Below are positions 32,814-38,078 of a stretch of 64,000 bases of DNA, in pieces. The DNA comes from Chaetoceros tenuissimus (Eukaryota; Bacillariophyta; Thalassiosirophyceae; Chaetocerotales; Chaetocerotaceae), in assembly GCA_021927905.1 (NCBI GenBank), contig BLLK01000027.1:496001-560000 (forward strand), written 5' to 3'. Below the pieces are notes generated by a model. The model was not told the DNA's origin and did no database searches. It saw nothing but the letters and a program-made list of their open reading frames with translations. The translations under genes were made by a program, and so were the position numbers. Position 1 is the stretch's first letter, and every line of letters begins with the position of its first letter.

Positions 32814-34724
32814 ATGAAATTGTTAGGAATGTTAACCAGGAAAGAACGAAGTGACGGTACTTCAAACAGTAGTCCTTTCAAAAAATCAAAACAAAGGAAG
32901 TCGTCAAGACAGCATACAAATTTACACTCTGTTTCTTCTCTATGTGGACCTAGTGCTAATTCTGTGGTTTCCATTCCATTAGAGAATAATGATGATAATA
33001 CCATGGTCGGCTCCAACACTTTATATGAATGGTCGGTCGCGGATAATGCACCATCAATCGGTTCGGCTGGGGAGATATTTCTTTCTGAAGAACAAAGGCG
33101 ATGGAATGAGATGAGAAGAAAGCATGCAGGAAAAACAACAAACAATCCAGATTCTAGCAGTGATGAAGAGGATGAAAATGACGACGATGAAAGTCAGAAC
33201 CTTCAATTTCTTCAATATATTAAACTATCAGATTCTCCTGCCCGATGCAAGCATGATTTAGAGAAGCAAAAAGATGCCGATGCTACACCTGTTCGGAAAA
33301 CGAGCAACCGCGGTAACAACTTGATTTCTGGAATTGAGTCGGAGAAGCTGTCAAGTCCCAACAACATCAAATCTCGTGTACAAGAGTTTTGTACAAGCCC
33401 TCTCTCCTGTCCCATTTCGTTAAAAGCAACAGCATCCATGCTGACTGCAGGATCATCTGGACCTATTGACGTTGATGATTTGACAGAAGAAAGGCAGTTT
33501 GATAACATCAAGGCAATGGAGGAAGCAAATAAAAATGATAAGTCGTGTTCAAAGAACTGTCTGTCAATCGAGTTGAAAGGAAGGATAGACGCTGCATATG
33601 ATGATGAAAATGAAATAGTAGATAATTCTTATGATGAATTCTACCCTGTCGATAGCCCATCAACAGTTGGATCGATTGATTGTTCTTCCATGAAAAATGT
33701 GGGTAATGAGAATAGTCCGTTGCATTCTACAGGCAAACCAACCAATGAAAGAATGAAAAGTAATTCAACACGCAACATTCAAGATGAGAATGAAACAACT
33801 TTCAACATGATCCGTAAACAGATTCATGATGCTGAACCTGAATTCACATTTTCGATAAGCGAAGAAGACCTTTTTGCTAGTGATGATTCAGAATTGATAA
33901 CTGCAACAGCTTGGCTTTTGAATGACAACGATCGTGGCAATAGTAATGATACATCTGGCTTTGTACTCAAAGATAGCAAAAGCAATGTTAGGGGTGAAGA
34001 TGTTAGAGGTATTAGTCTGATGCGTCAGAAAACAAGTAGAACAGTAATGACGGAAGCTGCGGTGGTAGGCGATGATGATTACTTAAATGCTGTGCCTGAC
34101 GCCAAAAACACAAAAGACCTTGCTTCTAGTAAGAAAGGGTTTATGAAAATGAAGTCTAGATTGAAATCTATTGTGAAGAAAGCTGGTAACATTACCTGCA
34201 CTGACAGCCACCCTGAGGGTAAAGCTTCAAGTCAATTGAAAAAGGCTAAAATGAAACGAGACCAATCAGAAGTGTCACTGAAGCCTTTAACAGGTATTGA
34301 AGACAATTCAAAGATACTCGGTAGATTCAGGAAAGACAATGTTTTGGTTAAGGAGATGAAGAGAAGGAAATATATCGAAAAGCTCAATGTGCAAAAATGC
34401 TGTGAAAAGAAAGTGCCAGTGGGGAAGGAAAGGTTAAAACTGAATACTGCTAGGAGATGGATGGATTCTTCAGGTTTGAGTTTCAGTGCAGACTTTTCTG
34501 ATGAAGAAACAGAAACTCCTCAAGCCTCAGTTCCAACTAAGCATGACTTTACGTGCGTAATCTGCCAACAGAACGAACGCACTCATCTATCTATTCCTTG
34601 TATGCATTTTAGTTATTGTGGGAATTGTGTGAATGACATAGAAATTAAGCAATGTCCTACTGTCACCATTCGCTGCGCTGTGTGTGAAGAAGAAGTCACT
34701 AAGTATTCAAAAGTATTCTTTTAG
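32814..34724 (+). CDS. C-terminal RING-finger protein, probable E3 ubiquitin ligase
   Basis: Single exon of 636 residues. The first ~570 are hydrophilic, acidic and Ser/Asn/Asp-rich, with no recognisable domain; they look disordered. The last ~55 form a C3HC4 RING: CVICQQNERTHLSIPC, MHFSYCGNC and CAVC. The finger sits at the very C-terminus, as in MGRN1/neuralized-type and many plant ligases, and would recruit an E2 enzyme. The substrate is unknown. It ends 76 bases from the 3' end of the enolase gene on the other strand. Confidence 0.78.
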   Translation: MKLLGMLTRKERSDGTSNSSPFKKSKQRKSSRQHTNLHSVSSLCGPSANSVVSIPLENNDDNTMVGSNTLYEWSVADNAPSIGSAGEIFLSEEQRRWNEMRRKHAGKTTNNPDSSSDEEDENDDDESQNLQFLQYIKLSDSPARCKHDLEKQKDADATPVRKTSNRGNNLISGIESEKLSSPNNIKSRVQEFCTSPLSCPISLKATASMLTAGSSGPIDVDDLTEERQFDNIKAMEEANKNDKSCSKNCLSIELKGRIDAAYDDENEIVDNSYDEFYPVDSPSTVGSIDCSSMKNVGNENSPLHSTGKPTNERMKSNSTRNIQDENETTFNMIRKQIHDAEPEFTFSISEEDLFASDDSELITATAWLLNDNDRGNSNDTSGFVLKDSKSNVRGEDVRGISLMRQKTSRTVMTEAAVVGDDDYLNAVPDAKNTKDLASSKKGFMKMKSRLKSIVKKAGNITCTDSHPEGKASSQLKKAKMKRDQSEVSLKPLTGIEDNSKILGRFRKDNVLVKEMKRRKYIEKLNVQKCCEKKVPVGKERLKLNTARRWMDSSGLSFSADFSDEETETPQASVPTKHDFTCVICQQNERTHLSIPCMHFSYCGNCVNDIEIKQCPTVTIRCAVCEEEVTKYSKVFF

Positions 34725-34800
34725 TTCCAACAACTTTAAATTACCAACAATTTAAATAATAGCAGTTAAAACACTTAAGTTACTTTTTATTCAAATAAAT

Positions 34801-36434
34801 TTAACCCATCCAGGAAGTTTGTCTGAATCCCTTTCCTGCGTAGATGGTATTCTCAGCTCCAAGTTCCTCTTCAATTCTAAGAAGTTGGTTGTATTTAGCA
34901 AGACGTTCACTACGGCAAGGTGCTCCAGTCTTGATCTGTCCAGTACAAAGACCTACTGCCAAATCAGCAATGTATGTGTCCTCGGTCTCTCCACTACGAT
35001 GAGATGTCATAACTCCCCATCCTGCTTGTTTGGATTTGGTCACAGCATCGATAGCCTCAGAGATTGATCCAATCTGATTCACCTTCAAAAGAAGACAAGT
35101 ACATGATTTCTCATCAATTGCACGTCCAATTTTCTCTGGGTTGGTCACAGTAAGATCATCCCCTACTACTTGGAATTGCTCTCCATTCTTTGCAGTGAAT
35201 TTTGCCCAGTTCTCCCAATCATCTTCGTCAAAAGGATCCTCGATGGTAACAATTGGGAAGTCAGCAGCAAGCTCTTGGTAAAGATTTCCTAGTTCTTCAC
35301 CAGAGATCTTGTTTCCGTCATACTTGAAGTCAAGATCGTAAGCATCTTCTCCCTTAACCTTGAACTCAGACGCAGCAACATCAAGACCAATGGTACACTT
35401 ATCCTCATAACCGGATTTCTTCAATGCCTCCATGATAAGTTCACATCCCTCACGGTTGTCACATGGTGGAGCGAATCCTCCTTCATCCCCAATCAATGTA
35501 GCATCTCCTCCGAACTTTGCTTTGATAATCTTTCCAAGAGTATGGTAAACTTCGCATCCAATTTGCATAGCCTCTTTGAAAGATGATGCACCAGTTGGGA
35601 TCACAAAGTATTCTTGGAACGCAAGCTTGTTTCCAGCATGACTTCCTCCGTTGATAACATTGAAACATGGAACTGGCATGGTGTATTTTCCCTCGGTGTT
35701 TCCTGCCAAATCAGCATAATGCTTGTAAAGAGGAACTCCCTTCGCTGCAGCACCTGCCTTGGAAACTGCGAGAGATACTCCCAAGATAGCATTAGCACCA
35801 AGCTTAGACTTGTTTGGGGTTCCATCGAGTGCAATCATTGCATTATCAATATCACGCTGAGAAGTTGGGTTGAGGCCCAAGATAGCAGGTCCAAGAACAG
35901 TGTTCACATTGTCAACTGCCTTTAGAACTCCCTTTCCAAGATAACGATCGCCTCCGTCGCGAAGCTCGCACGCTTCATATGCTCCGGTGGAAGCCCCAGA
36001 TGGTACAGATGCGCGGAAAGTTCCTTGGTTGGTGGTTACTTCAACCTGTATCGGTGTGGGAAGTTATGAATTAGGCAAATGATGTGTGCGGTTTTGAGTC
36101 ATGGAAGAATCTGATGACATCGTACTTACCTCTACAGTTGGATTTCCTCTGGAATCAAGGATCTCTCTTGCCAATACTCCAGTGATTGAAGCATCTCCTC
36201 CACCAGGAGCCATAGCGAGGCATGATTGTACAGCTTGTGTGTTTCCCATTTTGTTTACAAGGCTTGAGGGTCTAGAAGTGACGAATGCAAAAGTATTACC
36301 TATCCAATGGAAAAACGTGTTAGTATCCAATGTTTATGAGAGGATTAATAACAAGAATGTTTCCTTTCTTTTTGATAATTAGTTTACTTACTCGAAACGA
36401 GAAATAGTGCGAAAAGTGATTTCAACTGAAACAT
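34801..36434 (-). CDS. Enolase with plastid-type presequence
   Basis: Three exons (36434-36392, 36299-36130, 36045-34801) give 485 residues. Mature enolase (2-phosphoglycerate to phosphoenolpyruvate) is complete: [14 protein letters not shown], the GASTG loop, [10 protein letters not shown], the [13 protein letters not shown] signature and SHRSGETED. Exon 1 and the start of exon 2 add about 45 residues: a signal peptide [16 protein letters not shown], then [11 protein letters not shown] with Phe at the cleavage point and a Ser/Arg-rich stretch. That is the bipartite diatom plastid signal. An internal start at MAPGGG could in principle give a cytosolic form. It is divergent from phosphoglycerate mutase, the enzyme acting just before it. 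Confidence 0.95.
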
Positions 36435-36942
36435 GGTTCTAAACTACGCACTACTACGCAGATGTGTGATGCGTTGAAATTATAAAATTTGGGTTGGAGG
36501 GTCTTTAAAGTAAAATCGAAAGTATCTTTTCCTTCAGAGAAGATACGTATGGCGGAGCTTTGATGCGCTCCTTCTGGATGCAATCTTGAACTGAAATTAC
36601 AATTACGTACGTACTCACTTACATATCAACTGGGACTTATCCTTGACAAGTAGGGGTATCGATATGCTGCTTCTTACCGTTCCTTTCCTTCCTTTTTCCT
36701 TCTAAACAATATCGACCATCTGGACCAATCAAAAAGCATCACGTCGATGCTTCAATGCGAAAAGATACATCATCACCACAAGATTCAAGTTGACACCATC
36801 TCTCTTTTCCTCTGTTTTGTTGAATTTTCAAACATCGGCCAATGAAATTTACAATCTTATAGGCAACACATATCACCTCATCCATCTCTGGTTTTATTGT
36901 TCTTTCAACTAAAGCAACAATACCATAGTCAATTCTATCACC
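36435..36942. promoter_or_regulatory. Shared promoter interval of enolase and phosphoglycerate mutase
   Basis: 508 bases between two divergent ATGs. It contains no gene. A ccttccttttttcc pyrimidine tract lies near 36690-36705 and an acgtacgta palindrome near 36606. The arrangement suggests joint control of two consecutive plastid enzymes; inferred. Confidence 0.5.
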
Positions 36943-38078
36943 ATGTTCTTACTCAAATACCTTCTTACAAGCTTTGCTGTTGCAAATGCTTTCATGTCTA
37001 CTCCGTCGCAAAAGACTTTGACTCCTTCTCGCACATTCGGAAGTCAAATTGAACAAAGGTATGTATGTTACATGGAATGACATGAAATCTAATAAATTTA
37101 TTTGCATATCATTTCAGGTAATGGAAAAGTAAAAAACGAAAATGGGAGCGTTGGCAAAGTTGGCATATTAGGAAGAAATCATTGCTTCATTTTTATGTTT
37201 TTTATGCCACTTGTATGTTCCATCTAATTTATCATTTCTGCTTTCATCACATTCGTAGAATATCTCAAGTTCGGAAACATGCAACTCGTGCAAGTACATC
37301 CCTTGCAATGAAGTATACTCTTGTACTAGTAAGACACGGAGAATCTACTTGGAACAAAGCAAATCTTTTCACTGGATGGGCTGACGTCCCATTGTCTGAA
37401 AAAGGAGTTGAAGAAGCAACTGCAGGTGGTAAGCTGTTGGCGGAAGAGGGATTTACTTTCGATGTAGCATATACCTCTACTTTGAAACGTGCAATTAAAA
37501 CACTTTGGATAATCCTTGAAGAAATGGATCTCATGTACATTCCTATTGTTAATACATGGCGTTTGAACGAAAGACACTATGGTGCCTTGCAGGGTTTGAA
37601 TAAGCAAGAGACTGTGGACAAGTATGGAAAAGAACAAGTCTTAATTTGGAGAAGAAGTTACGATATCCCACCACCTGAGTTAGAAAAAGATAATGAGCAC
37701 TACCCAGGGAAAGATCCACGCTATGCCGATGTTGCAGAGGAAGATCTTCCACTTGCAGAATCTCTAAAGTTGACAGAGGATCGTTTTATGGTTGACTGGG
37801 AAAAGACTCTTGTTCCAGAAATTAAATCGGGAAAAAAGATTCTAATTGCCGCACATGGCAATACTCTTCGAGCACTTGTGAAACATTTAGATGGTATTTC
37901 TGAGGATGACATCACTGGATTAAACATTCCAACTGGAATTCCACTAGTTTATGAACTCGATGAGGATTTACAACCAATTCCGCATTCTGATGCAATTGCG
38001 CCACTCTCAGGACGTTACTTAGGAAACCAAGAGGAAGTAAAGGCGCGTATTGGTGCTGTAGTTGCACAAACTAAATAA
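36943..38078 (+). CDS. Phosphoglycerate mutase (dPGM type) with plastid-type presequence
   Basis: Two exons (36943-37058, 37259-38078) joined by a 200-base intron give 311 residues. The N-terminus [22 protein letters not shown] is a signal peptide with Phe at the cleavage point, followed by a basic Ser/Thr-rich transit stretch. The catalytic domain has [10 protein letters not shown] (phospho-His), [39 protein letters not shown] and the second catalytic His in [13 protein letters not shown]. All residues needed are present, so a 2,3-bisphosphoglycerate-dependent mutase interconverting 3- and 2-phosphoglycerate is expected. The first exon is essential for the targeting call; starting inside exon 2 would miss it. 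Confidence 0.94.

What the first reader, a model, noticed from the sequence alone, without database searches (positions are those of the whole stretch)
34801..38078. Head-to-head plastid-type enolase and phosphoglycerate mutase
Two enzymes of consecutive steps (3-PG to 2-PG to PEP) are divergently transcribed from a 508-bp interval. Each gains, through a short first exon, a signal peptide with an aromatic residue at the cleavage point (TFA|FVTS and ANA|FMST). This would give the plastid its own route from 3-phosphoglycerate to phosphoenolpyruvate, which not all algae have. Sharing one promoter would keep the two enzymes in step. The enzyme domains and leaders are seen directly; co-regulation and plastid location are inferred.
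Basis: partly seen in the sequence, partly recalled or inferred. Interest (0 to 1): 0.8.

Follow-up and report, generated by a model that had tools for sequence, protein, structure and literature searches.

The report
Head-to-head plastid enolase–phosphoglycerate mutase gene pair
Two diatom genes for neighbouring steps of sugar breakdown inside the chloroplast sit back to back and may share a control region; the enzymes themselves are already known, and the side-by-side placement is the only part that may be new.

Summary
A three-exon enolase (485 aa, minus strand) and a two-exon 2,3-BPG-dependent phosphoglycerate mutase (311 aa, plus strand) have 508 bp between start codons. Both carry a signal peptide ending A|F, the diatom plastid-import pattern. 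Short public contigs encode both proteins with the leader exon spliced in, one residue different each. The genome (41.03 Mb, 38% GC) fits Chaetoceros tenuissimus. Its only other enolase locus found is mitochondrial-type and has no mutase beside it. The plastid 3-PG-to-PEP route is not new: Dorrell et al. 2024 placed both enzymes in the Phaeodactylum plastid and reported co-expression, r = 0.868. What my searches did not find in print is the physical pairing. It is probably not confined to one species: names in C. neogracile read as genes 11 and 12 of one scaffold, and clusters of the two proteins share a longest contig of 23,631 bases. Orientation there, deeper conservation and a shared promoter are untested; the spacer shows no significant shared motif. 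Real, mostly explained, with a modest new arrangement worth testing.

The parts
36392..36434 (-). cpEnolase exon 1 (start codon, N-terminal part of signal peptide)
   Evidence: leader present in P0002
36130..36299 (-). cpEnolase exon 2 (cleavage region TFA|FVTS, transit peptide, start of enolase domain)
34801..36045 (-). cpEnolase exon 3 (most of the enolase, to the stop codon)
36435..36942 (.). 508-bp spacer between the two start codons; candidate bidirectional promoter
   Evidence: length; function inferred
36943..37058 (+). cpPGAM exon 1 (signal peptide ANA|FMST and first part of transit peptide)
   Evidence: leader present in P0121
37259..38078 (+). cpPGAM exon 2 (rest of transit peptide, 2,3-BPG-dependent phosphoglycerate mutase, stop codon)
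36522..36531 (-). GAAAAGATAC on the sense strand of the enolase, upstream; weak candidate motif
   Evidence: an inverted repeat this long arises in 45 of 500 shuffles, so not significant
36759..36768 (+). GAAAAGATAC on the sense strand of PGAM, upstream; weak candidate motif
   Evidence: as above

Best explanation
The two genes are the nuclear genes for the diatom plastid enolase and plastid phosphoglycerate mutase. Both proteins enter the complex plastid by a signal peptide followed by a transit peptide that begins with phenylalanine, and together interconvert 3-phosphoglycerate and phosphoenolpyruvate in the stroma. The divergent layout puts both starts within 508 bp, so that one open promoter region probably drives both and helps keep the two enzymes in proportion. 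Shown here: gene models, leaders, splicing (from transcript-like contigs), enzyme families, neighbourhood; adjacency in a second Chaetoceros is likely from names and contig length. Shown elsewhere for the P. tricornutum counterparts: plastid location, reversibility, co-expression. Inferred: import in this species and sharing of the promoter.
For: Gene models and transcript-like matches; family assignment; leader conservation in 65 of 73 and 77 of 87 extended homologues; one other enolase locus found, with a mitochondrial-type N-terminus by eye that fails my leader rule, and no PGAM match on its contig C38; the window PGAM groups with 20 other diatom homologues at 100/100, apart from the three own-genome paralogues put in the tree; C. 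neogracile names scaffold437 .11 (P0004) and .12 (P0122), and the equal longest contig 23,631 of P0004 and P0145; GFP, co-expression and reversibility of the counterparts (PMC11371179).
Against: No significant shared element in the spacer. Divergent neighbours with short gaps are common in this window: four of five minus-then-plus ORF neighbours have gaps of about 1.1 kb or less (ORFs only). Outside the neogracile contig no further enolase and PGAM clusters shared a contig length above 5,000 bases in the 120 rows listed per search, compared by eye. The C. neogracile enolase entry P0004 starts at an inner Met and lacks the leader, while its PGAM entry P0122 has one. No expression data for this species. 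Two own PGAM-like loci (L025, L027) also pass my leader rule with F, so this pair may not be the only plastid PGAM-like set.
Confidence: 0.72

Rival explanations
1. The enzymes are plastid enzymes as stated, but the adjacency is neutral: a chance juxtaposition in a Chaetoceros ancestor, kept only because short intergenic spaces are seldom broken. Each gene has its own promoter.
For: Compact genome, 18,705 genes in 41.0 Mb if it is C. tenuissimus (PMC8613185); minus-then-plus ORF neighbours with short gaps are common in the window; no significant shared motif; the paper on the co-expressed P. tricornutum counterparts does not call them adjacent in the passages searched, so linkage may not be needed for co-expression.
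Against: A rough estimate of 1/18,704 x 1/2, about 3 in 100,000, for these two named genes to be head-to-head neighbours by chance; probable adjacency in a second species whose proteins are 85-90% identical.
Confidence: 0.25
2. Dual products: the Met just before each enzyme domain (LAMAPGG in enolase, LAMKYT in PGAM) is also used as a start, giving cytosolic enzymes from the same locus, so that the pair serves two compartments.
For: A Met lies just upstream of the domain in 64 of 73 extended enolases and 73 of 87 extended PGAMs; the genome search found only one other enolase locus, mitochondrial-type; 41 of 120 enolase and 32 of 120 PGAM hits are listed without the leader.
Against: The near-identical transcript-like contigs contain the leader; an L-x-M at the end of diatom transit peptides may be a processing site or a relic of the original start (recalled, not tested). 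The short homologues may be mere ORF calls on genomic contigs.
Confidence: 0.1
3. One or both proteins are sent to the mitochondrion or stay in the secretory path and do not reach the plastid.
For: Stramenopiles have mitochondrial lower glycolysis with the same enzymes (PMC6198282, passages seen).
Against: Hydrophobic signal peptide and A|F junction in both, found in most extended homologues; the own mitochondrial-type enolase lacks both; GFP of the counterparts lies in the plastid (PMC11371179).
Confidence: 0.03

Closest known systems
Diatom plastid lower glycolysis: cpEnolase (Phatr3_J41515) and cpPGAM1A (Phatr3_J17086) of Phaeodactylum tricornutum, PMC11371179
   Same: Same two enzymes, same kind of plastid targeting, same reaction pair; co-expressed there (r = 0.868).
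   Different: In the main text 'head-to-head', 'synten', 'chromosome', 'locus' and 'gene pair' occur 0 times (sections 6 and 7 read, supplements not seen), so no adjacency is described. Whether the window PGAM is 1A or 1B was not resolved: I saw no P. tricornutum PGAM among the listed hits.
Mitochondrial lower glycolysis of stramenopiles (PMC6198282, passages seen)
   Same: Same enzyme families; the own genome holds a mitochondrial-type enolase (C38).
   Different: Different targeting; that enolase has no PGAM match on its contig.
Nitrate reductase and J39656 of P. tricornutum, putative bidirectional promoter of about 647 bp (PMC6779911, passages seen)
   Same: Divergent, co-expressed diatom genes with a short shared spacer.
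   Different: The spacer there carries five copies of a regulatory motif; the partner is of unknown function, not the next enzyme of a pathway.

Membership tests
Enolase (phosphopyruvate hydratase) | Full-length match over curated cut-off | tested here: met
   TIGR01060 529.6 bits, cut-off 300
2,3-BPG-dependent phosphoglycerate mutase | Full-length match over curated cut-off, RHGE motif | tested here: met
   TIGR01258 361.9 bits, cut-off 81.7; NF010713 383.4, cut-off 305; RHGES present
Diatom plastid-targeted proteins (signal + transit peptide, A|F junction) | Hydrophobic signal peptide followed by F at +1 after small residues | tested here: met
   Own simple rule; dedicated predictors (SignalP, ASAFind, HECTAR) not available
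Diatom plastid-targeted proteins (signal + transit peptide, A|F junction) | Protein found in the plastid | not testable with these tools
   Counterparts in P. tricornutum by GFP, PMC11371179
cpEnolase clade of Dorrell et al. 2024 | Groups with plastid-targeted diatom enolases, not with mitochondrial ones | tested here: inconclusive
   Most extended best hits bear plastid-type leaders; no enolase tree was built
cpPGAM1A clade of Dorrell et al. 2024 | Groups with Phatr3_J17086 | not tested
   That sequence was not seen among the hits; the window PGAM groups with diatom PGAMs most of which bear plastid-type leaders
Bidirectional gene pair | Opposite strands, starts under 1000 bp apart | tested here: met
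   508 bp between start codons; transcription starts unknown, they can only lie inside or beyond this
Bidirectional promoter | One region drives both genes | not testable with these tools
   No expression or reporter data
Evolutionarily conserved gene pair | Adjacency in other species | tested here: inconclusive
   One second species by gene names and contig length; DNA not seen, orientation unknown; genomes of other diatoms could not be searched

The most novel reading that the evidence does not exclude
The head-to-head cpEnolase-cpPGAM pair is an ancient, selected module of Chaetoceros or a wider group of diatoms, in which one bidirectional promoter fixes the ratio of the two enzymes that open the plastid 3-PG-to-PEP route, giving a cis basis for the co-expression known from P. 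tricornutum, where the genes may have separated.
Probability: 0.3. Interest if true: 0.55.

Novelty: new member of a known kind. Interest (0 to 1): 0.38.

Why it matters
Plastid lower glycolysis links carbon fixation directly to the pyruvate hub in diatoms (PMC11371179, abstract), and its two special enzymes are co-expressed in P. tricornutum. A physical pair would offer a simple cis mechanism, a natural two-gene promoter for diatom engineering, and a synteny marker to date when the two enzymes began to work together.

Tried and rejected
Viral contigs: the enolase query found nothing; the PGAM query found one locus, L031, whose neighbours look bacterial by eye. Prokaryote genome contigs with the enolase: 80 kept of 553 loci, bacterial or archaeal by title, best 62% identical, so no contaminating diatom contig was gained. 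The idea that the plastid pair arose by copying an already paired mitochondrial set: the PGAM search lists no stretch on C38, where the mitochondrial-type enolase lies, so no support. Independent-type PGAM: one weak match, 30.4 bits. PPDK: two weak stretches of one locus, 44.5 and 37 bits against a cut-off of 843; PEP to pyruvate would then rest on pyruvate kinase; not pursued. Spacer motifs: longest inverted repeat 10 nt, reached in 45 of 500 shuffles; the sigma-70 type scan says nothing for a eukaryote. No Rfam family at gathering score and no tRNA in the window. Pfam was run on 20 of the 31 ORFs of the table. The first tree, with two very divergent paralogues, was distorted and was rebuilt without them; the rows dropped are ownC21_L030 and ownC19_L025. 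Other PGAM loci (L027, L028, L029) were in neither tree. The first leader count had a faulty PGAM pattern and a stricter window (58 of 73 enolases with F) and was replaced (65 of 73).

Full report
What is there. The window is G000:C19:496001-560000 of a 41,027,912-base genome in 68 contigs; the window has 38.4% GC. This fits Chaetoceros tenuissimus NIES-3715, nuclear genome 41.0 Mbp, 38.9% GC, 18,705 genes (PMC8613185, passages seen); the identification is inference, no name was given. Splicing the minus strand at 36391-36300 and 36129-36046 gives a 485-aa enolase; splicing the plus strand at 37059-37258 gives a 311-aa phosphoglycerate mutase. Both score above curated cut-offs.

Exon 1 is used. 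Without splicing both leaders meet in-frame stops. Yet P0002 (contig 1,603 bases) and P0121 (longest contig 1,126 bases) encode the whole leader-plus-enzyme chains, with A9T and I40T as the only differences. Such contigs must derive from spliced transcripts; the tool does not state the source type, so this is inference, but a strong one.

Targeting. By a simple rule (hydrophobic core, small residues, then F) 65 of 73 extended enolases (of 120 listed; 6 lacked the core motif, 41 had a short or odd N-terminus) and 77 of 87 extended PGAMs (of 120 listed; 1 lacked the motif, 32 were short or odd) carry a plastid-type leader. As a comparison, the own mitochondrial-type enolase and PGAM loci L024, L028 and L029 do not pass; L025 and L027 pass with F, L030 passes with L only; L023 and L026 were not tested, their start exons were not determined. 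SignalP, ASAFind and HECTAR could not be run.

Paralogues. PF00113 matches two loci: the window and C38:720019-720897. The second starts MLASSATNAIRRAASTAGRR, a mitochondrial-type presequence by eye; its neighbours, by eye, are an unrelated ORF upstream and a transporter-like ORF downstream, and the PGAM search lists nothing on C38. TIGR01258 gives 18 matching stretches, which I group into nine loci over the cut-off including the window, plus two weak stretches (C34:1475040 and C54:789822) that were not studied. In the eight further loci fetched, the best matches to the window PGAM are 59% over 256 residues and 61% over 175 residues; one 55-residue exon piece reaches 65%. In a tree of 24 rows the window PGAM and 20 diatom homologues form one side (100/100) and the three own paralogues included form the other; the place of the window PGAM within its side is not resolved.

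Is the pairing chance? Head-to-head layout alone is ordinary: in the table of 31 ORFs of at least 180 codons five neighbours run minus then plus (one overlapping ORF pair left out), and four of these five, this one included, have gaps of about 1.1 kb or less; these are ORFs, not gene models. That these two named genes should be neighbours in this orientation has a rough chance of 1/18,704 x 1/2, about 3 in 100,000 (my arithmetic on the gene number); any of nine PGAM loci would give about 2 in 10,000. More telling, the hit lists hold a Chaetoceros neogracile enolase named scaffold437_cov288 .11 (P0004) and a PGAM named scaffold437_cov288 .12 (P0122), 90% (over 94% of the query) and 85% identical to the window proteins, and P0004 and the PGAM exon-2 form P0145 both have a longest contig of 23,631 bases. 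I read the numbers as consecutive genes of one scaffold. C. neogracile is a synonym of C. neogracilis. The DNA could not be fetched, so orientation and spacer are unknown; the enolase entry lacks the leader exon, the PGAM entry has it. By eye, no other enolase and PGAM clusters in the three lists share a contig length above 5,000 bases; as only 120 rows are listed each time this says little.

Shared promoter? The spacer is 508 bp, 38.4% GC. Its best symmetrical feature is GAAAAGATAC on the sense side of each gene, but an inverted repeat of 10 nt or more arises in 45 of 500 shuffles. So the promoter claim rests on distance, and on co-expression of the counterparts in P. tricornutum.

What is known. 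Dorrell et al. 2024 (PMC11371179: abstract, sections 6 and 7 and searched passages seen; supplements not) describe this plastid route: plastid versions of both enzymes in 60 of 101 diatom libraries with identified sequences, GFP in the plastid, co-expression r = 0.868, origin from mitochondrial isoforms. Thus the statement that the pair gives the plastid its own 3-PG to PEP route is right but not new. In that text 'head-to-head' and 'synten' occur 0 times; 'bidirectional' refers to the reactions. Diatom + cpEnolase found this paper only; diatom + enolase + bidirectional promoter none; Chaetoceros + enolase + phosphoglycerate mutase five papers, of which only this one is on the subject by the listing; enolase + phosphoglycerate mutase + divergently transcribed five papers, on bacteria or pathway prediction by the listing. 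Of the 46 papers holding diatom, enolase, phosphoglycerate mutase and plastid (25 listed) I opened two, PMC11371179 and PMC6198282, the latter only in passages. So I found no report of the gene pair, but the search is of an open library, mostly by listings. A precedent for a putative bidirectional promoter in a diatom is nitrate reductase with J39656 (PMC6779911, passages).

Verdict. A real, well-formed pair of plastid enzyme genes; the enzymes are new members of a known kind. The arrangement is the only part that may be new, likely shared by two Chaetoceros species, with co-regulation plausible and untested.

Noticed in passing
G000:C56:52882-55962 (L130): Two pyruvate kinase genes lie head to head, about 0.7-0.9 kb apart, apparently an inverted duplication without plastid-type leaders by eye; a second divergent glycolytic pair in this genome.
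   Followed up: partly
G000:C19:222203-224251 (L025) and G000:C34:2051233-2053181 (L027): Each locus holds two consecutive PGAM-like stretches on one strand, the first with a signal peptide + F leader; possibly double-domain proteins.
   Followed up: no
G000 whole genome: No pyruvate phosphate dikinase above the NCBIfam cut-off, only weak stretches on C46; independent-type PGAM also only weak.
   Followed up: no
34725-34800: The enolase gene and a RING-finger gene (32814-34724, +) converge tail to tail with 76 bp between the coding ends.
   Followed up: partly
36130-36299 and 37259-37320: A Met just before each enzyme domain occurs in 64 of 73 and 73 of 87 extended homologues, perhaps the original start codon before the leaders were gained, or part of a processing site.
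   Followed up: partly
L031:168-914: An IMG/VR contig with a dPGM 62% identical to the diatom-type protein P0145, in a neighbourhood that looks bacterial by eye.
   Followed up: partly
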